Shown here: piece after piece, positions 1,096 through 57,938 of the stretch | Layout of the letters: each line of letters starts with the position of its first letter | Numbering within the stretch: position 1 is the stretch's first letter | Source of the DNA: Afipia massiliensis | GTDB taxonomy: Bacteria > Pseudomonadota > Alphaproteobacteria > Rhizobiales > Xanthobacteraceae | Assembly: GCF_014203115.1 (NCBI RefSeq) | Contig: NZ_JACHIJ010000010.1 | Span: forward strand, 1-64,000 | Length of the DNA: 64,000 nt | Direction of reading: 5' to 3' | The notes under the pieces: generated by a model | Told to the model about the DNA's origin: nothing | What the model saw: only the letters and a program-made list of their open reading frames with translations | The model's database searches: none | Translations under genes and position numbers: made by a program

Positions 1096-1096
1096 T

Positions 1097-14401: not shown

Positions 14402-14466
14402 CTGCGCTCCTTGCGGCTACGATGAACCAGAAATCCTCCTTTCGTGAAGTCCCTCAATTTGTCTCA

Positions 14467-14951: not shown

Positions 14952-15051
14952 ATGAAGCCTCCCGACAACGCTATCCGAGCCTGCAACCGCTTCCAGAACT
15001 CCGGGAGCGGTAACGTCGCACGGAACAAAGATCGCAGCCCCGATTTGCTGC

Positions 15052-25883: not shown

Positions 25884-25914
25884 GGCACTCTCCTTGATTT
25901 GTCTTGCATGAGTG

Positions 25915-25945
25915 AAGGTGGGGCTTCCAACAATGGGAGGGTCAA
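25915..25945 (-). promoter_or_regulatory. CueR-type MerR-family promoter driving copZ
   Basis: On the reverse strand TTGACC (-35) is followed by a 19-base spacer, CTCCCATTGTTGGAAGCCC, and CACCTT (-10). The overlong spacer with a CTCCC...GGAAG dyad is typical of promoters twisted open by CueR/MerR proteins on Cu(I) binding. Confidence 0.65.
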
Positions 25946-25980
25946 TAGGTCTGCCCGCCGAAAAATTGCACCAATCGGCG

Positions 25981-26011
25981 TTGACCTTCCCATTGTTGGA
26001 AGCACCATGTT
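25981..26011 (+). promoter_or_regulatory. CueR-type MerR-family promoter driving the copA remnant
   Basis: TTGACC (25981-25986), a 19-base spacer TTCCCATTGTTGGAAGCAC and CATGTT (-10) mirror the copZ promoter 36 bases away. The start codon follows 33 bases later. No cueR gene is seen in this window, so regulation would come from elsewhere. Confidence 0.7.
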
Positions 26012-26043
26012 TGCGGTCAGCAGTGATTCAAGGAGCTGACGAC

Positions 26044-38355: not shown

Positions 38356-39060
38356 TCAGGAAACCAGGCGCGTAAGCGCATCCCGCCTGACGATCTGGAT
38401 CCGGCGCGAGCCTAGCGGCTTTATCCAACCGGTTCTTGCAAGCTGCTTCAACGTCCGAGAAACAGTTTCGATCGTCAAACCAAGATGATCCGCAATGTCC
38501 TGACGAGACATCGGAAGGTTAACTAGGTTAGCGGAATCCGTGCGCTGGCTCATCTGGAGCAAAAACCAGGCGATGCGTTCTTCGGCGGTCTTCGTCAGCA
38601 GGAGTATCTGATCCTGGAGGTGCTTGGTTTCCTTGCTCGCGATTCTCATGAGCTGCTGCGTTACATCGCGACGGCGACAGGTCAGCTTTGCGATCGTGTG
38701 ACGATTCGTGACTAGAATCTGGCTGTCGTTGACTGCGAAAGCGGAGGTGGCCTGCTCGTTGTGAGCCTCCAAGCCGAAATAGTCGCCCGGCAGATAGAAT
38801 TGGCAAATCTGACGGCGGCCGTTGTTCAGAATTCTCGATGTTCGAACCGCCCCGCTGACAACTCGGTAGACGTATTCGGCTGGCTGGCCTTCCCCGAAGA
38901 TCTCCGCGCCTCGTCTGTAATGCACTAGCCGTCCCATTTTCGCGATCGGCTCATCGATCTCACGCGACTTCCGTGCGACTGATTGTGCCTGTGGCAAGGA
39001 ACAGTCGTCGTAGCAGTTGACCGAGCATCGCTCGGGGAAGGCCTTAGCCTTAGCTAACAT
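38356..39060 (-). CDS. FNR/FixK-type transcriptional activator
   Basis: A 234-residue Crp/Fnr regulator. The barrel reads GAEIFGEGQPAEYVYRVVSG and ICQFYLPGDYFGLE. The helix-turn-helix is MSRQDIADHLGLTIETVSRT with the E-x2-S-R that contacts TTGAT half-sites. N-terminal cysteines C12, C16 and C20, with a central C128, could hold an oxygen-sensing Fe-S cluster as in FNR (whose spacing differs). It is the best local candidate to bind the many TTGA-N6-TCAA boxes in the window. It is divergent from the copA oxidase gene, with a box between them. Confidence 0.88.
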   Translation of the reverse strand: MLAKAKAFPERCSVNCYDDCSLPQAQSVARKSREIDEPIAKMGRLVHYRRGAEIFGEGQPAEYVYRVVSGAVRTSRILNNGRRQICQFYLPGDYFGLEAHNEQATSAFAVNDSQILVTNRHTIAKLTCRRRDVTQQLMRIASKETKHLQDQILLLTKTAEERIAWFLLQMSQRTDSANLVNLPMSRQDIADHLGLTIETVSRTLKQLARTGWIKPLGSRRIQIVRRDALTRLVS

Positions 39061-39297: not shown

Positions 39298-41340
39298 ATG
39301 TATGACCGATGGCGTACGGTTGGCAAATCCTTCGTTGCGTGGCTGTTTCTGACCGCGGGAACGGTCTCGGCGGTAGCTGGTACTCACGAAATCACCGTCG
39401 AGCGCCACGTCGTGAATGTCACGGGACGCGAACGTGTCGGCATGCTCATCAACGGGCAACTCCCGGGACCGGTGTTGCGACTCCGTGAAGGCGAAGATGC
39501 GGTCATCAACGTCAGCAACAGGCTGGATGAGAACATCTCGATCCACTGGCACGGACTGATCGTTCCGCCCGAAATGGATGGCGTACCTGGCATTTCGCCG
39601 GGTTACGGCGACGGTATCAAACCCGGCGAAACGTTCACCTATCGCTTCAAAGTCCGGCAAACGGGTACATATTGGTTCCACAGTCATTCGTCCGGCGAGC
39701 AGGAACAGCTCGGGATGTACGCCCCGCTCATTGTCGAGCCGAGGCAGCGCGATCCCTTCAAATACGATCGCGACTACGTGATCATGTTGTCGGATTGGAC
39801 GGACGAAGACCCTAAGCGCATCATCAGAAATCTCAAGAACGACAGTAGTTGGTACAATTACAACCGACAAACGCTGGTCGGCCTGATCCGGGAGCTCGGC
39901 AACGCTCCAAATGACGAGGCCCGAAAGGCGATCGTCAATAGTCGGGTAGCCTGGGGGCTCATGCGCATGGACCCAACGGACGTTGCGGATGTGGCCGGCT
40001 ATACGTTCCTGGTGAATGGTCAATCGCCAGAGCGAAATTTTACCGCGCTGGCCCGGCCTGGCGAACGTGTCCGTCTGAGATTCATCAACGCTTCCACGTC
40101 AACATATTTCGACGTCCGTATTCCGGGCCTCAAGATGACCGTCGTGCAGGCCGACGGGAACAACGTTTCGCCCGTGCGAGTGGATGAGTTCCGGATCGCC
40201 ATCGCGGAAACCTACGACGTCATCGTGCAGCCCACCGAAGATCGGGCTTACACCATTGTCGGAGAGCCCATGGATCGCACCGGCTTTGCGCGGGCGACCT
40301 TGGCACCGCGGCCCGGCATGGTCGGAGAATTGCCGCCGCATCGGCTACGTCCTCTCATGCAGATGTCCGACATGGCCATGAATCCCGGACCGAAAGGCGG
40401 CGACCGCGGGACTCTTCGTCCCGAACAGGACATGCCGGGTCATGTAGCGCCGGAGGATCCGGTCGCGATGGCGATTGGGGGAATGGGTGACATGAGCGGC
40501 ATGTCCGGAGCCGGCCCTCAACGGGGGGCGCAGCCTGGCGGCGGGATGCCCGAGCGAATGAGCATGCCGAAGACGAGCCCCGCCCGAAAGGGCCAAGGGG
40601 AGAAGGCCAAGACCGGAAAGCCTCCTCAAGCTTCTCCGATGCCGGGAATGGATCACGGCGGTATGCCCGGGATGAACAGCGGGACGCAAAACCGGATGCT
40701 CACCCCGAAAGAAAAACATGGCGCAACGTCCGGCATGATATCGCAGTCAGACGGGCCGAGCCGGAACGCGATGACAATCACGGGCGGCGTGCAGCAAGGC
40801 CCGCAGGCGCACGTACTTCACGGCGGCGAAGACATGCCGAACGCCGGGCCTCCGATGCAGCAGACAATGCCCGATCCGATCGCCAACGACACCGGCGCGC
40901 CCCCAGGGACGCGGGTCTTGTCTTATCGTGATCTGCGGCCGCTAAATCCCTATCCGTACAAGCAGTACGACCGCATCATCGAGATCCGCCTGACCGGAAA
41001 CATGCAGCGGTACTTCTGGTCGATCAATGGACGCAAGTTCAGCGAAGCCGAGCCGATTGTCCTGCGCTTCGGGGAGCGTGCGCGGTTCCGGTTCATCAAC
41101 GAAACGATGATGAACCATCCGATGCACATCCACGGGACGTGGATGTTGCCGGAGGTCGGAAACGGCGCGCGCAATCCAAAGAAGCATACGGTCAATATCA
41201 AGCCCGGTACGACGTTGGACGTCGATATCCCGGCGGATGCCGAGGGGCCATGGGCGTTTCACTGCCATCTGCTCTACCACATGGAAGCCGGCATGATGCG
41301 TCAGGTCAACGTCGTCCGCCAAACAGCCTCGTTGAAATAG
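39298..41340 (+). CDS. copA: Multicopper oxidase, copper resistance protein A
   Basis: A 680-residue periplasmic oxidase. An N-terminal signal (VGKSFVAWLFLTAGTVSAVA) is followed by three cupredoxin domains. Type 2/3 copper ligands are ISIHWHGL, YWFHSHSSGEQ and HPMHIHGTW; the type 1 and trinuclear ligands are in AFHCHLLYHMEAGM. A long Met/Gly-rich insert (about residues 350-490; MGDMSGMSGAG, MPGMDHGGMPGMN) before domain 3 is the Cu(I)-binding region of CopA/PcoA. The enzyme oxidises Cu(I) in the periplasm. copB starts nine bases after its stop. Confidence 0.93.
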   Translation: MYDRWRTVGKSFVAWLFLTAGTVSAVAGTHEITVERHVVNVTGRERVGMLINGQLPGPVLRLREGEDAVINVSNRLDENISIHWHGLIVPPEMDGVPGISPGYGDGIKPGETFTYRFKVRQTGTYWFHSHSSGEQEQLGMYAPLIVEPRQRDPFKYDRDYVIMLSDWTDEDPKRIIRNLKNDSSWYNYNRQTLVGLIRELGNAPNDEARKAIVNSRVAWGLMRMDPTDVADVAGYTFLVNGQSPERNFTALARPGERVRLRFINASTSTYFDVRIPGLKMTVVQADGNNVSPVRVDEFRIAIAETYDVIVQPTEDRAYTIVGEPMDRTGFARATLAPRPGMVGELPPHRLRPLMQMSDMAMNPGPKGGDRGTLRPEQDMPGHVAPEDPVAMAIGGMGDMSGMSGAGPQRGAQPGGGMPERMSMPKTSPARKGQGEKAKTGKPPQASPMPGMDHGGMPGMNSGTQNRMLTPKEKHGATSGMISQSDGPSRNAMTITGGVQQGPQAHVLHGGEDMPNAGPPMQQTMPDPIANDTGAPPGTRVLSYRDLRPLNPYPYKQYDRIIEIRLTGNMQRYFWSINGRKFSEAEPIVLRFGERARFRFINETMMNHPMHIHGTWMLPEVGNGARNPKKHTVNIKPGTTLDVDIPADAEGPWAFHCHLLYHMEAGMMRQVNVVRQTASLK

Positions 41341-41349
41341 GAGGGCGAC

Positions 41350-42132
41350 ATGAAATCCGTGCTCGCTTTGTTAGCCGGCTGCCTTCTCGGCTCCGCCATT
41401 CTGGGTGACGCCGCCATGGCTCAAACCGGGCCAGCCTATTCTCAGGAAATACTGTATTCAGGGTTACGCAACGCGCCCACGACGAGCTTCCCCGATCAGG
41501 CGCTATTCGGCGGCGTGCGCTTCGACAAGCTCGAATGGAATAGCCTAGGCGGGAACGAAAGGGCCCGCTGGGACATGGAGGCATTTGTCGGAAACGACTA
41601 CGACAAGTTCTTCTTCAAGTCGGAGGGTGCCTTCGACCGCCGTAGCCAAAAATTCGATGAGGCCCGGATCCAAGCCCTCTATTCGCGAATGATCAGCTAT
41701 TTCTTCGATTTCCAGGTCGGCGTGCGTCACGACGTCTCGCCGAAACCCTCGCGTACCTATGCTGTTATCGGGATCGAAGGCCTGGCGCCAGGCTTCTTTG
41801 AAATCGATGCCGACGCGTATATCAGCCAAAAGGGAGAAATCTCCGGGTCCTTCACGGGATCGTACGATCTACTGATCACCAACCGCCTCATTTTGCAGCC
41901 GCGTATCGATTTGAGGCTGCAACTGCAATCCGTCCCTGAGCTGGAATTGGGGAGCGGCCTTACGGACTTCGAACTGGGTGCTCGGCTTCGCTATGAGTTC
42001 ACCCGCAACGTGGCCCCGTACATCGGCGTAAGCTGGGATCGCAAGGTAGGCGAAACCGCCTCGATCGCCCAACGCAATCAGAAGCCCCCGTCGAGCGTAA
42101 ATTTCGTGGCCGGAGTCCGGCTGCTGTGGTGA
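41350..42132 (+). CDS. copB: Copper resistance protein B (outer membrane)
   Basis: A 260-residue protein after an AGGAGG ribosome-binding site. It has a signal peptide (LALLAGCLLGSAILGDAAMA) and then the CopB/PcoB beta-barrel: FGGVRFDKLEWN, WDMEAFVGNDYDKFFFKSEG, IDADAYISQKGEISGSF, RLRYEFTRNVAPYIGVSWD, ending in a C-terminal aromatic residue (VRLLW), as in outer membrane proteins. The Met/His-rich N-terminal region of some CopB proteins is absent. It works with CopA in periplasmic/outer-membrane copper handling. A decayed copy lies at 7254-8013. Confidence 0.9.
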   Translation: MKSVLALLAGCLLGSAILGDAAMAQTGPAYSQEILYSGLRNAPTTSFPDQALFGGVRFDKLEWNSLGGNERARWDMEAFVGNDYDKFFFKSEGAFDRRSQKFDEARIQALYSRMISYFFDFQVGVRHDVSPKPSRTYAVIGIEGLAPGFFEIDADAYISQKGEISGSFTGSYDLLITNRLILQPRIDLRLQLQSVPELELGSGLTDFELGARLRYEFTRNVAPYIGVSWDRKVGETASIAQRNQKPPSSVNFVAGVRLLW

Positions 42133-46457: not shown

Positions 46458-47354
46458 CGCCGACTCTACTTATTTCGATGCCGGGCAACGAGCGGTTGAC
46501 GGCGGGACTTGCCGAGCAGCTTGATTGCGAAACGGGCGAATTGAACACGCGGCAATTTCCGGACGGGGAAACCTATCTTCGCTTCGCCACCGATCTTAAC
46601 AAGCGATCCGTCGCGATCGTCTGCACGCTGGCGCATCCGGACGAAAAATCCTTCCTCTCATCTTTGCCGCTGCGACCGCGCGCGAGCTTGGCGCGTCGAA
46701 GGTGGGGTTGGTCGCTCCGTACCTCGCCTATATGCTGCAGGATCGGCGCTTCAATCCCGGTGAGGCGGTGACGTCCCGGCAGATGGCGCATCTTATCTCC
46801 GAGGCATTCGACTGGATGGTGACCGTCGACCCGCATCTGCACCGGTACAGCGATCTAAGCGAAATTTACTCGATACCCACGCGCGTCGTTCACGCGGCAC
46901 CGCTCGTTTCGCGGTGGATCAAGGCGAACATCGAGAAGCCGCTCATCATCGGCCCGGACAGTGAGAGCGAACAGTGGGTTGCGGCGGTGGCAAGCGACGC
47001 CGAAGCACCTTACTGTGTTCTCGAAAAGGTTCGCCATGGAGACCGGGACTTCAAGATTACGCTTAGGAATCTCGATGCGTGGCAGGGACGCGCGGCCGTC
47101 CTCGTCGACGACATCATTTCAAGCGGACACACGATGATCGAGGCCGTTCGGCTGCTTGCGGCGCAGGGCTGGTCACCGCCGGCTGCATCGCCGTCCACGG
47201 ATTGTTCGCGGATCACTCCGATGAACTGCTCGTCGGCGCCGGTGCTCGGGTCGTGACTACGAACAGCGTCGGTCCCGGGAGGAGCGAGATCGATATCGGG
47301 CCCCTGCTCGGGGAAGCGATCAAGGCTATCGAAACCGTTCAGCCTCGGCGGTAG
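46454..47354 (+). pseudogene. prs: PRPP synthetase, frameshifted second copy
   Basis: It aligns with 17621-18667. RQFPDGETYLRF is in the first frame. A shift near 46640 leads to VAPYLAYMLQDRRFNPGEAV, VDPHLHRYSDLS and VLVDDIISSGHTMIEAV, and another shift near 47165 leads to CIAVHGLFADHSDEL and the end. The Pro-rich tail of the intact copy is absent. Gene order is nuclease-phosphorylase-prs, whereas the intact operon has prs and the phosphoketolase-like gene first. Confidence 0.88.
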
Positions 47355-47418: not shown

Positions 47419-48123
47419 TCATCTTGCCATGTTCTTCATGGAGGTGCTGCCCGGCATCGGCACCATGCCGAGGATCAACTTTCGCTGTTCGGCTGTCAGT
47501 ACGTTGGCGGCTTCGCCGACTGCGCGTATGAATGCGAGTCTCGCGTCCGATTTGATCTTCTCGATTTCTCGCACCTTTGCTTCGACGGCGGCCGCGTCCG
47601 GCTGGTCGGCCGCCGTTAGCATCCAGAGTGCCTGTTCGGCTTCCTCGGCCTTCCGCTGGGCGGCAGACTGATCGATGAGCGAGCGCTGCTTGATCGCGTT
47701 CAATGCCGTCGATTGTTCGACCGTCAATCCAATTTTGTCGGCATAGTCAACGAAGAAGCCGCTGGCCCCGACGTGGTAGAGGTGGGAGGCGCCGGGAAAA
47801 CCGGGCAGAGCGGATGGCATGGCCATGGCGCCGTTCGGCCCCGGTGCCTTCCCCATCGAGCCCATGCAGCACATGCCACTCATGCCGCCATTCCCGCCAC
47901 CCATGGTACTGGTACCGCTCATGGGGGCGGCTGGCTGAGTGGCGGCGGCGCCGCCCATCTTGTTCATGTCATCCATCATCGCCAGCAACACGCCCGTTTC
48001 CCGTGCCCCCGCAGCGGAGGGTGCGGCTTGCAAAGAGGTGGCGAGCCCGGCCAACAATAGAATGAAAAACGCCGTCGGAACGGAGGGTAAGCGATAGGTC
48101 AGCATGGTTTTGGCCCGTTGCAT
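47419..48123 (-). CDS. Spy/CpxP-family Met/Gly-rich periplasmic protein
   Basis: A 234-residue exported protein from ATG 48123 (GGGAG upstream). A signal peptide (PTAFFILLLAGLATSLQA) precedes a Met/Gly-rich part (MSGTSTMGGGNGGMSGMCCM) with LPGFPGASHLYHVGASGFF. The helical LTxxQ-type domain follows: DKIGLTVEQSTALNAIK and LTAEQRKLILGM. Spy-like proteins protect periplasmic proteins under copper and envelope stress. A degraded copy is at 8693-9187. An FNR-type box lies 53 bases upstream. Confidence 0.75.
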   Translation of the reverse strand: MQRAKTMLTYRLPSVPTAFFILLLAGLATSLQAAPSAAGARETGVLLAMMDDMNKMGGAAATQPAAPMSGTSTMGGGNGGMSGMCCMGSMGKAPGPNGAMAMPSALPGFPGASHLYHVGASGFFVDYADKIGLTVEQSTALNAIKQRSLIDQSAAQRKAEEAEQALWMLTAADQPDAAAVEAKVREIEKIKSDARLAFIRAVGEAANVLTAEQRKLILGMVPMPGSTSMKNMAR

Positions 48124-48767: not shown

Positions 48768-49544
48768 TCAGTGGTGCTTGAACCAGCCGACACCCTTGAT
48801 GTCATTCCACGAATCCGTCCGATGGCACAGGAAGCACTGATTGACCTGTGCGTGCTCCTGGCCGGTGATTCCTTTGTCCATCATCTGGAAGTGCATCATG
48901 TAGTGGCTTGGCGGCGCCTGATGGCATTGCGCGCAGTTTTTGGAAGCCGGCGAGGGGTGCAGGAACCCTGCAATTCGCCAACTGGCGGTCTCATGACAGT
49001 TGCCGCATTCCCGGCCGAACAGATCCCGATGCGGCTCGCGGTTGCTGTGACAGCTTGCGCAGTCCAGCCCGTTCTTTTCGGCCAACCGTGAAACCGGCAA
49101 TCCAAGAAAGCCCTTCAAGTCGTCGACCATTTGACGGGGGACGCTTGGATGACCCCACTCGCCTACTTTGAGATGTGAGCCAATTCTAAGAAGTGCGGCG
49201 TGATCCATCTTGGTCGGACGGACGGCGCCGGCGTGCTCCACATGACATCCGCGGCAGTCCTGAACGTCGGCATGAAATGCGGTCGGTTGCTTGCCGAGGT
49301 CGGCAGCGGCGGTCGAATGGCAGCCGATGCAAGCGGCTGCCTCTACGCCCCGCGTCGGCGTGTGGCATGATTCGCAGTTTCCCGTCAGGAAGCGGTGCTT
49401 TTCGGAAAGGGGGCCGGGCTGGAAGGCGGCCTGCCAACCCGGTATCGAAGCCGATCCCGATCGGTAGAGAGAAACCACGGCGGCCACGCCGCCTACGACG
49501 GCGATCGTGATCAGCACAGTGTACCAAAGACCAAGCTTCTTCAC
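48768..49544 (-). CDS. Seven-haem membrane-anchored c-type cytochrome
   Basis: A GTG start at 49544 overlaps the upstream stop (GTGA) and gives 258 residues. One N-terminal membrane anchor (LWYTVLITIAVVGGVAAVV) is followed by a periplasmic domain with seven CxxCH haem sites at residues 57-61, 72-76, 97-101, 162-166, 180-184, 204-208 and 237-241. Many extra His residues could be the distal ligands. The pattern resembles the cytochrome c3/NrfB-type multihaem group, but I do not recognise a named family. As the last gene of a four-gene operon it should be the periplasmic electron outlet. Confidence 0.85.
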   Translation of the reverse strand: MKKLGLWYTVLITIAVVGGVAAVVSLYRSGSASIPGWQAAFQPGPLSEKHRFLTGNCESCHTPTRGVEAAACIGCHSTAAADLGKQPTAFHADVQDCRGCHVEHAGAVRPTKMDHAALLRIGSHLKVGEWGHPSVPRQMVDDLKGFLGLPVSRLAEKNGLDCASCHSNREPHRDLFGRECGNCHETASWRIAGFLHPSPASKNCAQCHQAPPSHYMMHFQMMDKGITGQEHAQVNQCFLCHRTDSWNDIKGVGWFKHH

Positions 49545-50245
49545 GATATCCACCGCAGCCCGTAGTAGATCTCGCCGGCCACGTGGAGCGCCAACAGCAG
49601 ATACATCAGGATTGCAGTCGTCACATGGGCGACGATCCACGGCATGAACATTCTCTTCACCACTTCGCGGGACCCGATGGCGTATTCGAGATCGGCAATG
49701 CCCTCCACAAGCCTTAGGATGGGCACACCCTGCGCAATCGAATCGCGTAGTGGCGGCCCCTCACCGTCGGACGATTGCCTGTCCGCAAGAGCGGACGCCG
49801 TTTGATCATATGCGGTCCGCAAGGTGGCCAGCCGGGATTGCTCCTCCCGTAGCTCGATCGACGTCTGCGGCAGATAGTAGCGGCCGACGAACCCGGTGAC
49901 GACCACCAGGAGCATGCTGACAACGAGGGCGACGCCGAGCGGGCTCTGATACTTATGTCCGGTGTGCAGGATGGCCAGGAATGCGCCGAAGACGCCGGCG
50001 TAGACGTGAAAGGCGAGTAGCGCCCGCATCGATGCAAGCCGCGCAATCAGCGATCTGAAGGACATGCTGTACTTGGCGACCGGATAGACCAACAGGGACA
50101 GCATCAAGGCGGCCGCAGCGGCGCCAAGCACAAAGCCCGACAGGCTGCCGGCAAACCGCGGCGAACTGTGGAGGACGAAGGCAGGCACCAGAAAAAGCAG
50201 GGTGGTGAGGACCGCGCCAACGGTGAGGCGTTCGTTCTCGCTCAT
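49541..50245 (-). CDS. Membrane protein with two H-X13-H pairs (di-haem b, ferric-reductase-like)
   Basis: A 234-residue protein with five hydrophobic segments. His residues H80 and H94 on one helix and H207 and H221 on another give two H-X13-H pairs, the arrangement that holds two stacked b haems in NOX/ferric reductase and b561-type membrane proteins. Around them are LLAFHVYAGVFGAFLAILHT and HVTTAILMYLLLALHV. A polar loop of about 70 residues (EEQSRLATLRTAYDQTASAL) lies between. It starts one base after the stop of the flavoreductase gene and overlaps the cytochrome gene. It should carry electrons across the membrane. Confidence 0.7.
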   Translation of the reverse strand: MSENERLTVGAVLTTLLFLVPAFVLHSSPRFAGSLSGFVLGAAAAALMLSLLVYPVAKYSMSFRSLIARLASMRALLAFHVYAGVFGAFLAILHTGHKYQSPLGVALVVSMLLVVVTGFVGRYYLPQTSIELREEQSRLATLRTAYDQTASALADRQSSDGEGPPLRDSIAQGVPILRLVEGIADLEYAIGSREVVKRMFMPWIVAHVTTAILMYLLLALHVAGEIYYGLRWIS

Positions 50246-50246
50246 T

Positions 50247-52376
50247 TCAAGCCTCGACGACCAGATTGCCGATCGATTTCGCCTGGCAAGCCAGGATGAT
50301 GCCGTCCGCCGTGTCCTCCGGCGTCAAGGCGTCCTCGACCTCCATGGTCACATTGCCTTCGAGAAGCTTGGTCTTGCAAACGCCGCAGACGCCGACCCGG
50401 CAAGAATAGTCGATCGGAACGCCAACGGATTCGGCGACCTCGAGCACGCTCTTGTCGGGCGGCAGCGGGGCGACCTTGTCCGATTTCGAAAACCGGAGCG
50501 AGGCGGTGGCCGGACCGATTGCAGACGCATCTAGGGGCGGTGTCCCCGCCGCCGCAGTAGCGCCGGCGACCGGCCGGATCTCGGCGACCTCCGTGAAGCC
50601 CGGAGGAGGTACCGCGCCCAATGCGGGACCAAAGGCTTCCGTCTTAACCTGCTCCGAGGGTACCCCGAGATCCACCAGAAGCTTCTTCATCGCCTGCATC
50701 ATGCCAGGCGGACCGCACAAATGAACACGACGCTTGGCAAGGTCGGGCACCGACTGGATCAGGAATTCTCTGTGGATCGGACCTTCGGCCCCCATCCACG
50801 AGGTTCCCGCGCTGCGTGCCATCGTCGCGGCCACGTGCAGATTGCGCATTTTCCGCTGACGATGTTCGAGCTCGTCGCGGAAGATGAACTCTTCGGTCGA
50901 TTTGGCCCCATAGAGGAGGTAGATCTCTCCCATCCAAGCAGTGTCTGCGAGGTAACGGATTGCGGCCATCAGCGGCGTGATCCCCACACCGCCGCCAATC
51001 AGGACGACGCTGTCCGATTCCGCCCCGGTGAAAGTGAAGACGCCCGAAGGCGCTATCACATCGATGAGGTCTCCTTCGGAGATCTGGTCGTGCATGAATT
51101 CGGAGAAGACGCCCTTCTCTTCTCGCTTGATCGTGGTCTCGACGTAAGCAGTTTGGGCGGCAGAAGAGGCGATGGTGTAGGACCGCCTGACGCGCTTGCC
51201 GTCGATCTCGGCCGAATACGTCAAGAACTGCCCCGGGGCGAAGGAAAACGGAATCGGTCCCCCCTGGGGGTCTCTTAGCCGAAACGTCTTCACCTGAGGG
51301 GTTTCGCGGAATATGGCGGCGACCTTCAGTTGGCCCTTCCAGAGCCCGGTGCGCGGTGAGCCGACAGGCGCCGTCGAGGTCGATGATGCCGGGCCAGTCC
51401 CCGCAGCGCCGGGGACGGCCGTCGCAGGAGAGCCCGTCGCTGGGGATGCCGGTGCCGTAGGCGCCGGCGTAGCGGGCGGGGGCCGGGTGCTCGTCAACCG
51501 ATCGATCAAGGCGTTCGCCCGGCGCATTCTGGAAAGATAAATCGCCAGCATGGCCACCGCGAACGCCGTCACCAGCGCCATCGTGACCAGGTGAAACCAC
51601 GATAGACCGAGCGGCCCCTCCTGGTCGTGAATTACCGTATCCGGCGCAAGGTTCATCTCTCCCTTGAACCAATCCAGCGCGATCTGCCGCGGCGGCTTTC
51701 CCTCGGCGAGTGATCGAAGGATCGTGTTGCCGCTCTTCACCTGAGCCAACGCGTCGCGCATGCGGGAGGCGGCCTGTTCGGCGCCATTGGTGTCACCTCC
51801 GGCGTTCGCATGACGAAGTGCGTTTTCAGCATTGGCTATCTCCTCGGTCCCGGCGCTGATCCATGCGCGCGCCTGTGCTTCGATGCGTTGGCGCTGTTCC
51901 GGAGAGAGGTTCGGCATCGCCATCAGCGACGCGTAGAATTCCTTGCGGGGGGCGCCCATGCATCCCGCACCCATGCACCCGCCCATCATACCGCCCATGG
52001 CGCCACCCGCGCCGGGGGCGCCCGAGCCCATGCCAGGCATTGACTGAGCCGGGCTCGGGCTGCCTACAGGTGAATTGCCCTGCGCAGTCGGCGGGGTGGC
52101 TGGCGGCGACATCGCAGGTGCGTCGGGAGTGCTCGCCCCGCCCTTCGGGTGGTGCTCAGAATGCCCATCAGGGGCCTGCGCAACGACCGCACTGCCTCGA
52201 TCATCGTTACGGGATCTGCCTGATCCGATCCAGCCCGATGGGAGGCTCGACGCTGCCGAAGCAATATCCGGAGCGGTGTTGATGTTGCCTGTGTGGTCGA
52301 GATGACTGAGGGCCGGATGGACCCATGCGATTAGGAGGCCCGCCGCCAATATGTTGCGCGCCACTTGCTCTGGCAT
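50247..52376 (-). CDS. Spy-like domain / transmembrane / flavin reductase / 2Fe-2S ferredoxin fusion protein
   Basis: About 709 residues. An N-terminal signal is followed by a Met/Gly-rich stretch (GAGGAMGGMMGGCMGAGCMG) and a helical LTxxQ-like domain (LMAMPNLSPEQRQRIEAQA). One membrane helix lies at about residues 262-285 (HLVTMALVTAFAVAMLAIYL), then a Pro/Ala/Thr linker. The cytoplasmic part is a ferredoxin-NADP reductase fold: FAD motif RRSYTIASS at about 399, NAD motif GGGVGITPLM at about 463, HLCGPPG at about 557. A plant-type 2Fe-2S domain ends it (YSCRVGVCGVC at about 660, last Cys at about 699). It should draw electrons from NAD(P)H. A GTG at 52385 is an alternative start. Confidence 0.82.
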   Translation of the reverse strand: MPEQVARNILAAGLLIAWVHPALSHLDHTGNINTAPDIASAASSLPSGWIGSGRSRNDDRGSAVVAQAPDGHSEHHPKGGASTPDAPAMSPPATPPTAQGNSPVGSPSPAQSMPGMGSGAPGAGGAMGGMMGGCMGAGCMGAPRKEFYASLMAMPNLSPEQRQRIEAQARAWISAGTEEIANAENALRHANAGGDTNGAEQAASRMRDALAQVKSGNTILRSLAEGKPPRQIALDWFKGEMNLAPDTVIHDQEGPLGLSWFHLVTMALVTAFAVAMLAIYLSRMRRANALIDRLTSTRPPPATPAPTAPASPATGSPATAVPGAAGTGPASSTSTAPVGSPRTGLWKGQLKVAAIFRETPQVKTFRLRDPQGGPIPFSFAPGQFLTYSAEIDGKRVRRSYTIASSAAQTAYVETTIKREEKGVFSEFMHDQISEGDLIDVIAPSGVFTFTGAESDSVVLIGGGVGITPLMAAIRYLADTAWMGEIYLLYGAKSTEEFIFRDELEHRQRKMRNLHVAATMARSAGTSWMGAEGPIHREFLIQSVPDLAKRRVHLCGPPGMMQAMKKLLVDLGVPSEQVKTEAFGPALGAVPPPGFTEVAEIRPVAGATAAAGTPPLDASAIGPATASLRFSKSDKVAPLPPDKSVLEVAESVGVPIDYSCRVGVCGVCKTKLLEGNVTMEVEDALTPEDTADGIILACQAKSIGNLVVEA

Positions 52377-52397
52377 GGACTGCACCCGCCGCTTTTA

Positions 52398-53087
52398 TCA
52401 GAACGTGGCGATCAGTGGCAGCAGGATCGTATCAGCAGTCTGTTTTTGAGCATCGTTCAGCGTAGGATAAAGCCTGGTAAATGCCGTTCGGGCCGACTTC
52501 ACGGCCTCAAGTCGTTCGGCCAGGTGGCGCTCATAACGTTCGATCCGGGCTGCGGAATTCGTCTTGTCGTCCACTACAAGAAGATTGCGGGCATCGACCA
52601 AATGCTGGCGTCCCGACCGAAGGGACTCCGCCAAAGCATTCCAATCGGCCTGCTGCTTATCGGTGATTTGCAGTTCTGCCTTCAGGAAGGCGATCCTTCC
52701 CTCGATGCGCTCCGTGACGTCCGTTGTGCCGGAGGTGGTACCCATACCCGGCATGGAGCCCATGTGACCCCGCATCATCTTCTCCATCATCATCATCATG
52801 CCGTTCTGAGGCTGACACATCGAGCCTTGGCACTTCTCCTGCATTTGCGCAGGCGGGTTCATGCGATCGTCCATCATCCTACGGTCCTGACCCGCCTTTT
52901 GAGGCTGACCGCCCGGCATGTTCATGCTGCCTGGCTTCCCCATCGGGTCCGGCTGCATCGGCTTCATGTCGTCCATAGCAAGAAGAAGCCGGGAGGGGGT
53001 TTGGCCGTCTGCCGAATTGCCGGCATGGGGTGCAGCAAGGATCGCCAACGCCGATGCGACGCCTATCAGTGTGCGGAACGTACTCAT
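52398..53087 (-). CDS. Met-rich Spy/CpxP-like periplasmic protein
   Basis: A 229-residue exported protein: signal peptide (TLIGVASALAILAAPHAG), a Met-rich segment (MKPMQPDPMGKPGSMNMPGG, MMMMMEKMMRGHMGSMPGM) and a helical domain with LTxxQ-like motifs (AELQITDKQQADWNALAES and PTLNDAQKQTADTI). The Met clusters suggest Cu(I)/Ag(I) binding. First gene of the operon with the flavoreductase fusion, membrane protein and seven-haem cytochrome. An FNR-type box is 79 bases upstream. Confidence 0.75.
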   Translation of the reverse strand: MSTFRTLIGVASALAILAAPHAGNSADGQTPSRLLLAMDDMKPMQPDPMGKPGSMNMPGGQPQKAGQDRRMMDDRMNPPAQMQEKCQGSMCQPQNGMMMMMEKMMRGHMGSMPGMGTTSGTTDVTERIEGRIAFLKAELQITDKQQADWNALAESLRSGRQHLVDARNLLVVDDKTNSAARIERYERHLAERLEAVKSARTAFTRLYPTLNDAQKQTADTILLPLIATF

Positions 53088-53165
53088 CCTATTTCTCCAT
53101 GCATGCGTCGGATCGAAGAGCCGTAGCGGCGATCCGCAACCCTAACCCAACGGCCGTCCGGAGAT

Positions 53166-53179
53166 TTGATTTGGGTCAA
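53166..53179. promoter_or_regulatory. FNR/FixK-type box
   Basis: TTGATTTGGGTCAA, 79 bases upstream of 53087. It is placed to control the whole 53087-48768 operon. Confidence 0.65.
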
Positions 53180-53323: not shown

Positions 53324-53737
53324 TCACAGGCCGCCGTCTGTCCGGTCGTTCGCCTCCGCGCGCTCGCGCCGCCAAGGCAGCCGGCCGTCAATCTCGATCT
53401 GAAGCGAAAAGCTCAGGAACGTACGTATAACGATGATTAAGCCGAGAACCGCAAGCCGCTCCAAAGTCGGCACGATGGCGACCATGCCAATGATGTCCGC
53501 CGCGATCAAAAATTCGAGGCCAAGCAGGATCCCGCGCCCGAGATTCGCCCGATAGGACCGGAAAGCGCCGTGCCATTCACCCTGATACATCTGCTGCACG
53601 GACCACATGCTCGCGGCGATCACGCCTCCTATGATGACTGCAACCCCGAGGACCTCCACGATTGACGCAATCCAATGGAGCGTATGCAGTACGATGGCCC
53701 TGGCCTCCATGCTGAGGACGAGCTCGGAAGTCAGCAT
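53324..53737 (-). CDS. DUF1622-family membrane protein
   Basis: A 137-residue protein with three hydrophobic segments (IVEVLGVAVIIGGVIAASMW, GILLGLEFLIAADIIGMVAI, LAVLGLIIVIRTFLSFSL) and the conserved RxxLGRGILLGLEFLIAADI block of DUF1622. Function unknown. Its start overlaps the end of opgC by seven bases, so the two are cotranscribed. Confidence 0.78.
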   Translation of the reverse strand: MLTSELVLSMEARAIVLHTLHWIASIVEVLGVAVIIGGVIAASMWSVQQMYQGEWHGAFRSYRANLGRGILLGLEFLIAADIIGMVAIVPTLERLAVLGLIIVIRTFLSFSLQIEIDGRLPWRRERAEANDRTDGGL

Positions 53738-54948
53738 TTCGGCTCCTTGGCTCTTGCATGCTTTCCGCAGCCATGGCCGAGCGGAGAAGGTGCTGCCCCC
53801 CCCGTCGGTGGCATAGGCCTTTGCGGCGCCGTGATCGCGAGCTTATCGATCTTCTTCGACCAGGACCGATAGTAGGCAACACCAGTCATGATGGACAGGC
53901 CAGCGGTGCCTACCAACATCTGGACATAGAAAGCGTTCGATGTGGTGTCCAATACGAAGTGAGCAACAAACGAAAGAAAAACCCCGACGCAGAATACCTC
54001 CAGCGATTGTTGGCCACACTTGATGACCGGACGGAATACCGGCCAGCGAAGTCCCGACCAGTCGAACGGGATAAACCTCACGACAAGAAGGGCCAATGCG
54101 AGAAGGTGCAGGACCCGATAGGGAGCAAGATTGGTCTTGTCGTTGGGCCTGAATGCCGCCGTCAGTTGACTTACAAGTGGGACGTCCAACTCGGGAATAA
54201 GCGTCGCGAGCGTTGCCACCAGCGCAAACAGCAGGAAAGCGACGCTAAGGACCAAAGGGATCCGGGCAGTCACGATGGGACGGACGGTCCGGGATCCCCC
54301 AGCCGCAAGCCATGCACCCAATACGAACAGCAGTTGCCACGTAAACGGATTGAAAAACCAGTCACCGGACGGATAAGAGGGCAGATTCCAATGAAAAAAT
54401 CTGGCGGAAAAATAAAGCAGCAGCGATCCGGCGAGCGCCCAGTTTCTATGCCGTAGCATGAGCCACAGGACCGGCGGATAGGCTCCCATCAAGACGATGT
54501 ACAGAGGGAGCACATCGAGATTGAGCGGCTTGAACTTTAAGAGGAGCCCTTCGGTCAGCGTCTCAACCGGGAATTCCATCAAATGCGCAACGTTGAACTG
54601 GTCCATCAGGTGAGGAATGTCGAAGCGGTGTGCCAGGTAATGGACCGACGTGAGATAGAATATGAACAGAAGTACATGGGCGACGTACAGTTGCCAAACG
54701 CGTCTAAGCAGTCGTGTAGCGCCGATGACGAAACCGCGTTGCACCATCATCCTGCCGAAAACCAGGGTGGCGGTGTAGCCCGAAATGAAGACGAACAGAT
54801 CGGCCCCGTCGCTGAATCCGTAGTTGCGCGAGGTCAACCATGCCAGCGCCGTGCCGGGAATGTGGCCAAAGAAGATGGCCCAATTCGCCAATCCCCGAAA
54901 AAGATCGAGCCGCAAATCTCGCTCTAGCGACGGAACAAACAGCGTCAT
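53731..54948 (-). CDS. opgC: OpgC-family membrane acyltransferase-like protein
   Basis: A 405-residue protein with about ten transmembrane segments. RDLRLDLFRGLANWAIFFGH opens the family, followed by FSDGADLFVFISGYTATLVF, and QSLEVFCVGVFLSFVAHFVL ends the domain. OpgC proteins add succinyl or similar groups to periplasmic glucans. The C-terminal tail is short and Pro/Cys-containing. Why it sits in a metal island is unclear. An FNR-type box lies 68 bases upstream. Confidence 0.85.
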   Translation of the reverse strand: MTLFVPSLERDLRLDLFRGLANWAIFFGHIPGTALAWLTSRNYGFSDGADLFVFISGYTATLVFGRMMVQRGFVIGATRLLRRVWQLYVAHVLLFIFYLTSVHYLAHRFDIPHLMDQFNVAHLMEFPVETLTEGLLLKFKPLNLDVLPLYIVLMGAYPPVLWLMLRHRNWALAGSLLLYFSARFFHWNLPSYPSGDWFFNPFTWQLLFVLGAWLAAGGSRTVRPIVTARIPLVLSVAFLLFALVATLATLIPELDVPLVSQLTAAFRPNDKTNLAPYRVLHLLALALLVVRFIPFDWSGLRWPVFRPVIKCGQQSLEVFCVGVFLSFVAHFVLDTTSNAFYVQMLVGTAGLSIMTGVAYYRSWSKKIDKLAITAPQRPMPPTGGAAPSPLGHGCGKHARAKEPKC

Positions 54949-55015
54949 CGATTACAGTTCCGGGCGTGCTGGTGAAGAGCCCGCCAATCTATTCCGCCGA
55001 AAAAACCGCTCAGGT

Positions 55016-55029
55016 TTGATGTACGTCAA
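55016..55029. promoter_or_regulatory. FNR/FixK-type box
   Basis: TTGATGTACGTCAA, a near-perfect palindrome 68 bases upstream of opgC (start 54948). Confidence 0.65.
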
Positions 55030-55092
55030 AAATTCATCCTGCATTTCGTTCTAATCCGCCCCAGTAAGCGAGAGGAAGTAGCCAGCCCCGTA

Positions 55093-55129
55093 AAAAGCCT
55101 GCATGACATGCGTCATGCAGGCTTTTTTG
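55093..55129. terminator. Bidirectional Rho-independent terminator
   Basis: GCCTGCATGAC (55098-55108) and GTCATGCAGGC (55113-55123) form a perfect 11-bp stem with a 4-base loop, preceded by A5 and followed by T6. It lies 25 bases beyond the stop of the ATPase gene at 55154 and can stop transcription on both strands. Confidence 0.9.
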
Positions 55130-55153
55130 CGCCTCGCCAACGGACGCTAGACG

Positions 55154-57607
55154 CTAAAGGCTCGCCACGCGAAGGCGCAACGCGTTGCCGACGACGCTCA
55201 CCGACGAGAGGGCCATGGCGGCGGCGGCGATGATGGGCGAGAGCAGTATCCCGAATGTCGGATAGAGAACTCCGGCGGCAATCGGGACGCCGGCGGCGTT
55301 GTAGATAAACGCGAAAAACAGATTCTGTCGGATATTGCTCATGGTGGCCTCCGACAGCTTGCGGGCGCGGACGATGCCGCCCAGGTCGCCTTTCAGCAGG
55401 GTGATGCCCGCGCTTTCCATCGCGACATCGGTCCCAGTGCCCATCGCGATACCGACTTCGGCAGCGGCGAGGGCCGGGGCGTCGTTGACGCCATCGCCGG
55501 CCATCGCCACGATCCGCCCGGCCTTCTGCAGCCTGGCAACGACCGCGCTTTTCTGGTCCGGAAGAACTTCGGCCTCGACGTCCTCGATCCCGAGCTGCCG
55601 TGCGACGGCCATGGCGGTGGTGCGGTTGTCCCCGGTCAGCATGATCACCTTGACGCCTTCCGCTCTCAGATCCCTCAGCGCCGCCGGAGTCGACGCCTTG
55701 ACCGGGTCCGCGATCGCGAACAGCCCGGCCAGTTTGCCGTCGACTGCCATGTTGATCACAGTGGCGCCTTCACCCCGCATGCGCTCGCCCTCCGCTTCCA
55801 GCGACTGTGTCGCGACACCCAGAGACGCCAAGAAGTTCGCATTGCCCAGAAGGATGGATTTGCCGTCGACCTTGCCTACCGCGCCCTTGCCGGTCGGGGA
55901 ATCGAAGTCCTCGACCTTGCCCAGGACCAACTTGCGATCATTGGCGGAGCGGACGATGGCGTCCGCGAGGGGATGCTCGCTGGCCCGTTCGACGGTGGCG
56001 GCGAGACGCAGAAGTTCGTTCTCATCGTGACCCGGTGCGGGGACGATCGAGACCACTTTCGGTTTGCCTTCGGTGAGAGTCCCGGTCTTGTCCACCACCA
56101 GCGTATCGATCTTTTCCATTCGCTCCAGCGCTTCGGCATTCTTGATCAGTACACCGGCCTGTGCGCCGCGGCCGACCCCGACCATGATCGACATCGGCGT
56201 GGCCAAGCCGAGCGCGCAGGGACAGGCGATGATCAGCACGCTGACGGCGGCAACCAGGCCGTACGCCATCCGCGGTTCCGGTCCTAACCAGGCCCAGGCG
56301 CCGAAAGCCATGACGGCAACGACAATGACCACCGGCACAAACCACCCGGAGACCTGATCGGCCAGACGCTGGATCGGCGCGCGCGAGCGCTGCGCCTCCG
56401 CGACCATCCTGACGATCTGGGAAAGCAGCGTGTCGCGCCCGACCTTATCGGCGCGCATCACGAAGCCGCCGGACTGGTTGAGCGTGCCCGCGATCACCTT
56501 GCCGCCGGATTCCTTGGTGACGGGCATGGATTCGCCGGTCACCAGCGATTCGTCGAGCGAGGAGCGGCCTTCGAGAATGACGCCGTCCACCGGCACCTTC
56601 TCGCCCGGCCGGACCCGCAGATGATCGCCGACCTGCAGGCTTGCGATCTCGACTTCATGGTCGGAACCGTCATCGCCGATGCGGCGGGCGGTTTTCGGCG
56701 CCAGTTCGAGCAGGGCCTTGATCGCGCCTGACGTCGACTCGCGGGCGCGGAGTTCGAGCACTTGGCCAAGCAGGACCAGAACTGTGATTACCGCGGCGGC
56801 TTCGAAGTAAACCGCCACCGCGCCGCCGTGGCCGCGGAAGGTGGCCGGGAAGCTTTCGGGCAGCACGGTTCCAATGACGCTGTAGACATAGGCGACACCG
56901 GTGCCCATGGCGATCAAGGTGAACATGTTGAGATTGCGTGTGAGCAGCGATTGCCAGCCGCGCACGAAAAACGGCCAGCCCGCCCAGAGCACCACCGGTG
57001 TGGCGAAGGCTAGTTGAATCCAGTTCGACAGGGTCTGGTCGACCCAGCCATGCGCCCCGACGAGATGCCCCCCCATCTCAAGGACCACCGGTGGAATGGA
57101 GAGCACAAGGCCGATCCAGAAGCGCCGCGTCATGTCGGCAAGCTCGGGATTGGGCGGCGTATCGAGGCTGGCCACCTCGGGCTCCAGCGCCATGCCGCAG
57201 ATCGGACAGTTGCCGGGACCGACCTGGCGGATCTGCGGATGCATCGGGCAGGTATAGATCGCGCCTTCCGGCACCTCAGCCTTCACGCTGGTCTTGTCGA
57301 GATAGGAATTTGGGTCGGCGGCAAACTTTGTCCTGCAGCCGGTCGAACAGAAATGGAAGGTCTTGCCGGCATGGTCGAACCGATGCTGGCTGGTCGCGGG
57401 GTCGACCGACATGCCGCAGACGGGGTCGCGCACGGTCGCGTTGCTATGGGCATGGGTATCGGCATGGCCTGCGTGATCGTGGCCGTCGCCACCGCAACAC
57501 CCGGTCTTCGACGTCTCCTTGGGAAGATCGGCCCCCATCTTGGACCCGCAGCCGCAGCCGGAACTCTTTGCATCATTGACTGTATTTGCGTTTCGAGCGT
57601 CGGTCAT
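55154..57607 (-). CDS. Copper/silver-exporting P-type ATPase with YHS and heavy-metal-binding domains
   Basis: From ATG 57607 (GGAG upstream) the protein has 817 residues. A Cys/His-rich head ([28 protein letters not shown]) leads to a YHS domain ([20 protein letters not shown]) and an HMBD ([20 protein letters not shown]). The ATPase core follows: TGES ([12 protein letters not shown]), metal site CPC ([13 protein letters not shown]), DKTGTLTEG and [12 protein letters not shown]. This P1B-1 architecture resembles SilP/CopA exporters in the inner membrane. It is divergent from a CsoR-family repressor. An ATG at 57619 is an alternative start. Confidence 0.92.
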
Positions 57608-57636
57608 GCGTTTCTCCATGCGGCCACTTGCAACCC

Positions 57637-57653
57637 ATACCATGTATAGGTAT
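57637..57653. promoter_or_regulatory. Dyad between ATPase and CsoR-family genes (possible repressor operator)
   Basis: ATACC-N7-GGTAT (57637-57641, 57649-57653) lies in the 55-base divergent region, next to both start codons. CsoR/RcnR proteins bind such G/C-cored dyads. Assignment is by position only. Confidence 0.45.
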
Positions 57654-57662
57654 ATAGACGCC

Positions 57663-57938
57663 ATGCGAAAAGACATCAAGGTATCCTGTCAAAAACGGCT
57701 GAGCCGAATCGAAGGCCAGGTCCGCGGTCTGTCCAAAATGGTCGACGAGGATCGCTACTGCATCGACATCGTCACCCAGATCTCGGCGGTGCGAGCCGCA
57801 CTTCGGCGGGTCGAGGAAGAAGTGTTGCGGGATCACGTGTCGCATTGTGTCGAACACGCGATCAGCAGCGGCAACAAGACCGATCGGCGCGCGAAGATCG
57901 CGGAACTAATGGCCGTGATCGGGCGGTCCGATCGTTGA
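57663..57938 (+). CDS. csoR: CsoR/RcnR-family metal-sensing repressor
   Basis: A 91-residue all-helical repressor. The DNA-binding opening is [20 protein letters not shown], and the metal ligands are Cys in [10 protein letters not shown] and His/Cys in [11 protein letters not shown]. This Cys-His-Cys set is that of Cu(I)-sensing CsoR rather than Ni/Co-sensing RcnR. It probably represses the divergent ATPase and possibly itself through the dyad between them. The leader has only a weak ribosome-binding site. Confidence 0.87.

What the first reader, a model, noticed from the sequence alone, without database searches (positions are those of the whole stretch)
48768..53179. Putative NAD(P)H-to-periplasm electron conduit under an FNR-type box
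Four tightly packed genes behind one FNR-type box (53166) encode a Met-rich periplasmic Spy-like protein, a flavoreductase/2Fe-2S fusion with a membrane helix, a membrane protein with two H-X13-H pairs (H80/H94 and H207/H221, spacing of a NOX/ferric-reductase type di-haem b), and a seven-CxxCH cytochrome. The gene joints are a 1-base gap and a GTGA overlap. Together they form a complete path: NAD(P)H, FAD, 2Fe-2S, two b haems, seven c haems, periplasm. Seen: motifs and order. Known: H-X13-H pairs in NOX/ferric reductases. Inference: the system reduces a periplasmic acceptor such as Cu(II) or another metal, or feeds a periplasmic reductase. I know no named system of this composition.
Basis: partly seen in the sequence, partly recalled or inferred. 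Interest (0 to 1): 0.9.

Follow-up and report, generated by a model that had tools for sequence, protein, structure and literature searches.

The report
Copper-island transmembrane electron conduit
Four adjacent genes look like a wire that carries electrons from the cell interior across the inner membrane; the core of the set travels on plasmids and genomic islands among distant bacteria, often beside copper-resistance genes, and no description of its function was found.

Summary
Four intact minus-strand genes (48768-53087) encode a Met-rich Spy/LTXXQ protein, a flavoreductase/2Fe-2S protein, a membrane protein with two H-X13-H pairs, and a seven-CxxCH cytochrome.

The genes are a real unit. 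Flavoreductase, membrane protein and cytochrome stay together in Alpha-, Beta- and Gammaproteobacteria and Bacteroidota. The four heme-pattern histidines are invariant in 49 of 49 rows; seven CxxCH are kept in 47 of 48. In 72,556 plasmid records the membrane protein and the cytochrome hit exactly the same 52.

The context is often copper resistance: copper markers flank 26 of 47 loci against 0 of 20 control stretches. But 17 of 30 contig loci, mostly Bradyrhizobium-type, lack them, and a [NiFe] hydrogenase lies downstream in a few.

Best reading: an NAD(P)H-driven outlet to the periplasm, most often serving copper, probably by reducing Cu(II) to Cu(I) when oxygen is scarce. The conduit is well supported; direction and acceptor are inference. 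By gene order, homologues of two subunits are 'orf1' and 'cyt' of the Alteromonas hydrogenase operon.

The parts
53166..53179 (.). FNR/FixK-type box TTGAN6TCAA, about 80 bases above the first gene
   Evidence: Exact match; 11 such boxes in the window against 0.73 expected. A box lies at -500..+60 of the first module gene in 10 of 46 locus copies, against 83 of 1325 ORF starts in the same loci and 6 of 770 in control loci.
52398..53087 (-). Met-rich periplasmic Spy/CpxP-like (LTXXQ) protein, 22 Met in 229 aa
   Evidence: PF07813 E 6.7e-19; Met count; a Spy-like gene upstream of the core in many but not all relatives
50247..52385 (-). NAD(P)H flavoreductase: signal-like segment, Met-rich stretch and conserved domain (about 1-258), membrane helix 259-287, FAD, NAD and C-terminal 2Fe-2S domains
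   Evidence: Pfam above cut-off for FAD_binding_6, NAD_binding_1, Fer2; helix; Met-rich stretch in 47 of 47 full-length sequences, window included, mean 15% Met against 2.5% in the flavoreductase half
49541..50245 (-). Membrane protein with about five helices, predicted di-heme b: H80/H94 and H207/H221, plus H26 and H97
   Evidence: All six His in 49 of 49 rows; DUF4405 24.4 bits, just under the cut-off of 26.7
48768..49544 (-). Membrane-anchored seven-CxxCH cytochrome c
   Evidence: Seven CxxCH in 47 of 48 rows (the exception, L095, shows 3), conserved further His; Cytochrom_c3_2 31.9 bits against cut-off 25; N-terminal helix 3-29
47419..48123 (-). Second Met-rich Spy-like protein just downstream, under its own box at 48176
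   Evidence: PF13801 Metal_resist E 8.1e-9; box
39298..42132 (+). Copper-resistance pair: multicopper oxidase (39298-41340) and CopB (41350-42132), box at 39202
   Evidence: Pfam Cu-oxidase domains; PF05275 CopB E 8.8e-78; box
53324..57679 (-). DUF1622 and OpgC genes (box 55016) and a copper P-type ATPase (box 57935): island neighbours, not part of the conduit
   Evidence: Pfam and NCBIfam; boxes
38356..39060 (-). CRP/FNR-family regulator gene, a candidate reader of the boxes
   Evidence: HTH_Crp_2 E 2.8e-21, cNMP_binding E 4e-15; not shown to bind the boxes

Best explanation
The operon encodes an inner-membrane complex that takes electrons from cytosolic NAD(P)H and delivers them to the periplasm. 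Path: NAD(P)H, FAD, 2Fe-2S (flavoreductase), two b hemes (H80 with H207 on the cytosolic side, H94 with H221 on the periplasmic side), seven c hemes, acceptor. In many settings the acceptor is linked to copper. The most likely reaction is reduction of periplasmic Cu(II) to Cu(I), which the Met-rich part of the flavoreductase and the Spy-like proteins bind and pass to Cu(I) exporters and stores, under low oxygen when the O2-dependent multicopper oxidase cannot work. Shown: gene unit, domains, invariant ligand residues, frequent copper-island context, FNR-type boxes. Inferred: cofactor occupancy, heme pairing, direction, Cu(II) as acceptor, role in tolerance.
For: All three core genes in 51 of 52 loci, which were found through the membrane protein (47 loci after removing 5 duplicates); the exception, L093, has its contig edge where the cytochrome would lie. 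Membrane protein and cytochrome hit the same 52 of 72,556 plasmid records, no orphan of either at E 1e-5. Invariant ligand residues. Met-rich stretch in 47 of 47 full-length flavoreductases. Copper markers in 13 of 30 contig loci and 13 of 17 plasmid loci against 0 of 20 control stretches. CopB co-occurrence in the family: 16 module genomes and 10 CopB genomes of 341 share 6, p 7e-7; phylum sample: 7 and 87 of 398 share 4, p 0.044. Of the 9 genomes with both, 8 have them on one contig, 2.3 to 25.4 kb apart. In the window, boxes also lie upstream of the multicopper oxidase, the second Spy gene, OpgC and the copper ATPase. A heavy-metal MerR-type regulator gene lies upstream of the module in Sphingomonadales and Caulobacter plasmids.
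Against: 17 of 30 contig loci have no copper marker in the flank held; about 10 of these are Bradyrhizobium or its family, where OpgC and an ECF-sigma-like gene are recurring neighbours. 4 of 17 plasmid loci also lack one (L098, L101, L103, L104). A [NiFe] hydrogenase lies 2.2-2.4 kb downstream in Alteromonas, Glaciecola and genome G611. Making Cu(I) raises periplasmic copper toxicity unless capture is tight. The cytochrome looks fully bis-His, with no obvious catalytic heme. The structure models neither support nor exclude the heme geometry. Plasmids are a biased sample, the marker queries came partly from the plasmid loci themselves, controls came only from contigs of seven genomes, and related loci are not independent.
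Confidence: 0.45

Rival explanations
1. General electron outlet or two-way link between the NAD(P)H pool and the periplasm, with no fixed acceptor. It serves whatever periplasmic redox enzyme is encoded nearby and mainly rebalances NAD(P)H in anoxia; copper islands are one setting among several.
For: Hydrogenase genes 2.2-2.4 kb downstream on the same strand in L103, L104 and L078, and about 9 kb away in BTAi1. FNR-type boxes across the island, which also holds fermentation-type genes: phosphoketolase and 2-oxoacid:ferredoxin oxidoreductase. Seven probably bis-His hemes look like a wire, not a catalyst (inference). 17 of 30 contig loci without a copper marker.
Against: The Met-rich stretch is conserved even beside the hydrogenases (L078, L103, L104), and copper markers are the most frequent neighbours after the Spy, DUF1622 and OpgC genes (the marker set was chosen by me).
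Confidence: 0.33
2. Link to a periplasmic [NiFe] hydrogenase: H2 oxidation driving NAD+ reduction, or NADH-driven H2 release helped by the membrane potential.
For: Same order, module then small and large hydrogenase subunits, in Alteromonadaceae and in genome G611. In Alteromonas, orf1 and cyt were cloned as part of the hydrogenase operon (PMC3102683, passages).
Against: In 47 loci both hydrogenase subunits were found in only 4, and a partial small-subunit hit in a fifth (L092); one of 20 control stretches also had both. Orf1 and Cyt were not needed for maximal HynSL activity in E. coli, though an in vitro assay would bypass the natural electron path. No hydrogenase subunit among the 38 window ORFs scanned, although one is a cytochrome b561/Ni_hydr_CYTB protein (14454-15098).
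Confidence: 0.08
3. Reductive repair: electrons restore oxidised methionines in the Met-rich copper proteins, as MsrPQ does for periplasmic proteins.
For: Met-rich stretch in every full-length flavoreductase aligned and Spy-like genes near many modules; PMC11334425 compares DUF4405 proteins with MsrQ (passages).
Against: No product named methionine sulfoxide reductase in the 17 annotated plasmid regions read (their gene tables are incomplete); no such domain in the module.
Confidence: 0.05

Closest known systems
Alteromonas hynSL operon genes orf1 and cyt (PMC3102683; passages read)
   Same: By gene order they are homologues of the membrane protein and the cytochrome: in pAM1A3 the order is flavoreductase, membrane protein, cytochrome, 407-aa protein, hydrogenase maturation endopeptidase, HupH-like, small subunit
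   Different: In the passages read no function is assigned and no link to a flavoreductase, Met-rich domain or copper is made. The identity rests on gene order here, not on the paper's own sequences.
DUF4405 / FezC cytochromes (PMC11334425; abstract and passages)
   Same: Membrane cytochromes b with four central His, tied to extracytosolic electron transfer; heme b binding was shown for one DUF4405 protein and FezC
   Different: The window protein falls just below the Pfam cut-off (24.4 against 26.7 bits), has six invariant His and pairs with a seven-heme c protein instead of flavinylated proteins
NOX / ferric reductase superfamily (PF01794)
   Same: Two H-X13-H pairs on two helices, fed by an NAD(P)H flavoreductase (superfamily features recalled)
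   Different: Flavoreductase is a separate protein with its own 2Fe-2S and Met-rich part; about five predicted helices; the c hemes are extra; Pfam cut-off not reached
CrpH, PepSY_TM putative periplasmic copper reductase (PMC13038864; passages)
   Same: Proposed periplasmic Cu(II) reduction through membrane b hemes
   Different: Single protein, different family, supports heme-copper oxidases; its authors call copper reduction a speculation
Cbc-type b/c conduits of Geobacter (recalled, no call)
   Same: Di-heme b protein combined with multiheme c
   Different: Recalled as quinol-fed; here the feed is NAD(P)H

Membership tests
NOX / ferric reductase transmembrane family (PF01794) | Curated Pfam score | tested here: not met
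   Window protein E 0.66, 10.5 bits against 28; 9 of 22 members of alignment A3 match at E up to 1, best 0.0049
NOX / ferric reductase transmembrane family (PF01794) | H-X13-H pairs on two membrane helices | tested here: met
   All four His in 49 of 49 rows; helices by hydropathy
NOX / ferric reductase transmembrane family (PF01794) | Fold with hemes stacked between two helices | tested here: inconclusive
   Model pLDDT 65.9, pTM 0.47; Foldseek no match at E 0.001; only general helical matches in the second look
DUF4405 cytochromes (PF14358) | Curated Pfam score | tested here: not met
   24.4 bits against 26.7; 17 of 22 members of A3 match at E up to 1, best 4.2e-5
DUF4405 cytochromes (PF14358) | Binds heme b | not testable with these tools
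   Needs spectroscopy
PepSY_TM reductases | PepSY_TM Pfam match in the membrane protein | tested here: not met
   None among the matches up to E 1 of the window protein, nor among the 25 of 35 families shown for the 22 members of A3
Class III / c7-type multiheme cytochromes | Pfam Cytochrom_c3_2 or Cytochrome_C7 above cut-off | tested here: met
   31.9 against 25 and 25.0 against 24.8 bits
NapC/NirT quinol dehydrogenases (considered) | NapC/NirT Pfam match | tested here: not met
   No such family among the six matches up to E 1
Spy/CpxP/LTXXQ proteins | PF07813 above cut-off | tested here: met
   First gene 68.9 against 24.3 bits
Copper reductase (function) | NAD(P)H-dependent Cu(II) reduction | not testable with these tools

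The most novel reading that the evidence does not exclude
A mobile NAD(P)H:Cu(II) oxidoreductase: a multi-protein, trans-membrane copper reductase (FAD, 2Fe-2S, two b hemes, seven c hemes) with its own Met-rich Cu(I) receiver, traded between phyla inside copper islands and switched on by low oxygen, so that Cu(I) exporters keep working when the O2-dependent oxidase cannot.
Probability: 0.33. Interest if true: 0.85.

Novelty: new variant of a known kind. Interest (0 to 1): 0.7.

Why it matters
Copper resistance is usually described as export, oxidation and storage. A conserved, plasmid-borne reducing arm tied to NAD(P)H would add a missing half of periplasmic copper redox control and give a testable reason why this island carries FNR-type boxes. 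Even if copper is not the acceptor, a compact NAD(P)H-to-periplasm conduit whose core is conserved from Bradyrhizobium to Spirosoma is a useful new electron-transfer module, and it offers a role to two unexplained genes of the studied Alteromonas hydrogenase operon.

Tried and rejected
Structure prediction did not help: membrane protein pLDDT 65.9, pTM 0.47, cytochrome 41.9 and 0.22. Alignments were limited to 18 rows because only window proteins and related-loci loci may be submitted. Foldseek gave no match at E 0.001, and the VIA-align list held general helical proteins, no recognised cytochrome b in the 50 rows shown. PDB sequence searches found nothing useful for the membrane protein and only weak c7 or nitrite-reductase hits for the cytochrome.

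I tested whether the flavoreductase's Met-rich part is itself a Spy domain. Profile comparison gave only 30% probability (P 5.5e-4), so I do not claim it.

Defence role: no PADLOC match for the four proteins. Phage carriage: membrane protein without a match in 50,697 phage records at E 1e-5.

Burkholderia low-oxygen locus: considered as a parallel for the wider island from memory; only a listing was seen and no gene comparison was made, so it is not used.

Searches returned no paper. No paper describing this gene set as a system appeared in the listings, but listings are titles and abstract openings of an open-licence library only, and just four papers were opened, by passages. The Vargas 2011 paper was looked up and is not held; the Weyman 2011 genetics paper was not looked up.

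Rows dropped: weak membrane-protein hits (E 1e-3 to 1e-17) belong to other proteins where I looked and were left out of module counts: 3 of 19 genomes with a match, 20 of 27, 1 of 5. In one search, 2 of the 35 besides the window were strong (G340, G147). Five duplicate loci were dropped. One cytochrome piece under 150 aa (L095) and one flavoreductase under 550 aa (L102) were dropped from alignments. In L102 the Met-rich part and the flavoreductase lie in two ORFs about 1.1 kb apart.
Full report
WHAT IS THERE. The window holds four adjacent intact genes on the minus strand: a Met-rich Spy-like protein (52398-53087), a flavoreductase with 2Fe-2S (50247-52385), a membrane protein (49541-50245) and a seven-CxxCH cytochrome (48768-49544). 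Pfam places the first gene in LTXXQ (E 6.7e-19), the second in FAD_binding_6, NAD_binding_1 and Fer2, and the fourth in cytochrome c3/c7 families, all above cut-off; the membrane protein is just under the DUF4405 cut-off.

The flavoreductase has a long N-terminal part ahead of its membrane helix (259-287). That part holds a conserved domain preceded by a Met-rich stretch: 15% Met on average against 2.5% in the flavoreductase half, at least 4 Met in 47 of 47 full-length sequences, the window's included. With a basic segment after the helix, it should lie in the periplasm (inference from the positive-inside rule). One further homologue, L102, was too short for the alignment: its Met-rich part is a separate ORF about 1.1 kb upstream. 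The likeness to Spy proteins is weak (30% probability).

INVARIANT RESIDUES. Across 49 membrane proteins from Alpha-, Beta- and Gammaproteobacteria and Bacteroidota (48 locus copies and the window; 5 duplicate loci dropped), H26, H80, H94, H97, H207 and H221 are present in all. In 48 cytochromes all seven CxxCH are kept in 47; L095 shows 3, its cytochrome falling into two matched pieces. Further His (H50, H91, H104, H115, H172, H196, H214, H218) are in 47 or 48 of 48, enough for bis-His ligation of all seven hemes (inference). By hydropathy the membrane protein has about five helices; with the N terminus inside, helices 3 and 5 run the same way, which pairs H80 with H207 and H94 with H221 (inference; the model is too poor to test it). 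H26 and H97 would both sit on the periplasmic side and may form a further metal or heme site (inference).

A REAL UNIT. Loci were found through the membrane protein. All three core genes are there in 51 of 52 loci examined; the exception ends at a contig edge. In 72,556 plasmid records tblastn finds the membrane protein in 52 and the cytochrome in 52; I compared the two lists by eye and the accessions are the same. The flavoreductase domain has wider relatives (200 records at E 1e-40). The module is patchy: 4 of 29 genomes of the window's genus and none of the other 32 relatives at strong scores, 16 of 341 in the family, 7 of 398 in the phylum sample, with a wide gap between E 3e-82 and 5e-17. 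Of the 52 plasmids, 26 are typed conjugative. This points to horizontal transfer; no tree was built. The window's genus is probably Afipia, since genome G002's contig has the same length as that of an Afipia record (17,898 bases).

COPPER CONTEXT. Many annotated plasmid neighbourhoods show multicopper oxidase, CopB, copper or heavy-metal ATPases, four-helix copper-binding proteins, DUF305, DUF411 and MerR-type regulators. 'Copper resistance protein B' is named in 9 of 17 such regions; for scale, 2,889 of 72,556 plasmid records carry a CopB relative, a base rate not corrected for plasmid size. With BLAST markers (oxidase, CopB, heavy-metal ATPase, four-helix protein, DUF305, DUF411, CusF), copper genes lie in 13 of 30 contig loci and 13 of 17 plasmid loci, against 0 of 20 control 20-kb stretches at positions I picked on contigs of seven of the same genomes. 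Caveats: five duplicate loci were dropped; flanks differ in length; RND pumps were not counted (they also hit 3 of 20 controls); some queries came from the plasmid loci; DUF411 alone counts in some loci. CopB co-occurs beyond chance in the family (6 shared; 16 and 10 of 341; p 7e-7) and marginally in the phylum (4 shared; 7 and 87 of 398; p 0.044); the samples share the window's genome, and related genomes are not independent. Of 9 genomes with both, 8 have them on one contig 2.3 to 25.4 kb apart; in the ninth (G002, fragmented) they lie on different contigs. The window itself holds the oxidase/CopB pair 6.6 kb from the cytochrome, and a copper ATPase 2.1 kb from the other end, beyond DUF1622 and OpgC.

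EVIDENCE THE OTHER WAY. 17 of 30 contig loci show no such marker. About 10 of them are Bradyrhizobium or its family, by record name or genus label, and their shared neighbours include OpgC, an ECF-sigma-like gene, and a small protein with a Cys/His-rich tail. In Alteromonas and Glaciecola plasmids and in genome G611 a [NiFe] hydrogenase follows the module on the same strand, 2.2 to 2.4 kb on (G611 has 9% contamination); in BTAi1 one lies about 9 kb on. So the conduit is probably not bound to one acceptor.

REGULATION. The window has 11 TTGAN6TCAA boxes against 0.73 expected. Five of them sit upstream of the module (53166), the oxidase/CopB pair (39202), the second Spy gene (48176), OpgC (55016) and the copper ATPase (57935, about 250 bases up). 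A CRP/FNR-family regulator is encoded at 38356-39060. In other genomes a box precedes the first module gene in 10 of 46 copies, close relatives among them, against 6.3% of ORF starts in the same loci and 0.8% in controls. Sphingomonadales and Caulobacter plasmids have a heavy-metal MerR-type regulator gene upstream. So oxygen and metal signals are both plausible inputs; neither was tested.

HOW IT MOST LIKELY WORKS. Electrons from NAD(P)H enter FAD and 2Fe-2S on the cytosolic face, cross two b hemes and leave through seven c hemes. Flow to Cu(II) is downhill and helped by the membrane potential (established bioenergetics, recalled). Cu(II) is an easy acceptor, and Met-rich partners favour Cu(I). 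Copper ATPases and Cus-type pumps handle Cu(I) (recalled). Without O2 the multicopper oxidase stalls, so a reductive route would make sense there. This last chain is inference; I give it 0.45, and the broader claim of an NAD(P)H-to-periplasm conduit about 0.8.

KNOWN OR NEW. A DUF4405 protein and FezC were shown to bind heme b (PMC11334425, passages). CrpH is a speculated periplasmic copper reductase of another family (PMC13038864, passages). The Alteromonas operon named orf1/cyt/orf2/hynD/hupH/hynS/hynL matches by gene order the module's last two genes, and these were found unnecessary for maximal hydrogenase activity in E. coli (PMC3102683, passages). The Alteromonas plasmid paper links the same island to metal tolerance, and the word cytochrome does not occur in its main text (PMC4781885, passages). 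No paper seen in the searches listed describes the set as a system. I rate it a new variant of a known kind: parts and principle are known, the combination and setting are not.

Noticed in passing
window 1-64000: The window looks like one island rich in FNR-type boxes (11 against 0.73 expected) with phosphoketolase, 2-oxoacid:ferredoxin oxidoreductase, metallo-beta-lactamase/beta-CASP-fold proteins, ribose-phosphate pyrophosphokinase and thymidine phosphorylase-like genes: a mix of copper resistance and low-oxygen metabolism.
   Followed up: partly
window 44893-47354: A thymidine phosphorylase-like and a ribose-phosphate pyrophosphokinase-like gene seem broken over several frames (judged from the ORF translations), while long-frame relatives lie at 17621-18667 and 22355-23929. 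The same gene pair lies near the module in Legionella and Qipengyuania plasmids.
   Followed up: partly
window 7388-8004 and 25912-27334: A second CopB is split over two matches, and HMA and E1-E2 ATPase domains fall in two overlapping ORFs, so parts of the island look decayed or carry sequence errors; the four module genes are intact.
   Followed up: no
window 605-1498: A 297-aa ORF ends in a 2Fe-2S domain distantly like that of the flavoreductase (36% over 70 residues); its partners were not sought.
   Followed up: partly
L155 4675-7532 and L157 4998-6316: Distant relatives: a 192-aa protein with two H-X13-H pairs overlapping a 10-CxxCH (L155) or 8-CxxCH (L157) cytochrome gene, in L155 also beside an NAD/FAD flavoreductase. 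This suggests a wider family of b/c conduits.
   Followed up: partly
L016 1192-3403: A further relative of about 308 aa with two H-X13-H pairs sits beside a protein with cNMP-binding domains and a 4Fe-4S dicluster domain.
   Followed up: no
L054 4113-6267 (BTAi1 plasmid pBBta01): A second, divergent module copy whose flavoreductase-like gene is only 636 bases long and abuts an IS3 transposase.
   Followed up: no
L103 11563-12786: The 407-aa protein between the cytochrome and the hydrogenase genes corresponds by gene order to orf2, listed among the proteins required for maximal hydrogenase activity in E. coli.
   Followed up: no
window 53324-54948: OpgC and DUF1622 recur beside the module (17 and 21 of 52 loci, duplicates included); why a glucan-modifying type of membrane enzyme should travel with it is unexplained.
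   Followed up: no
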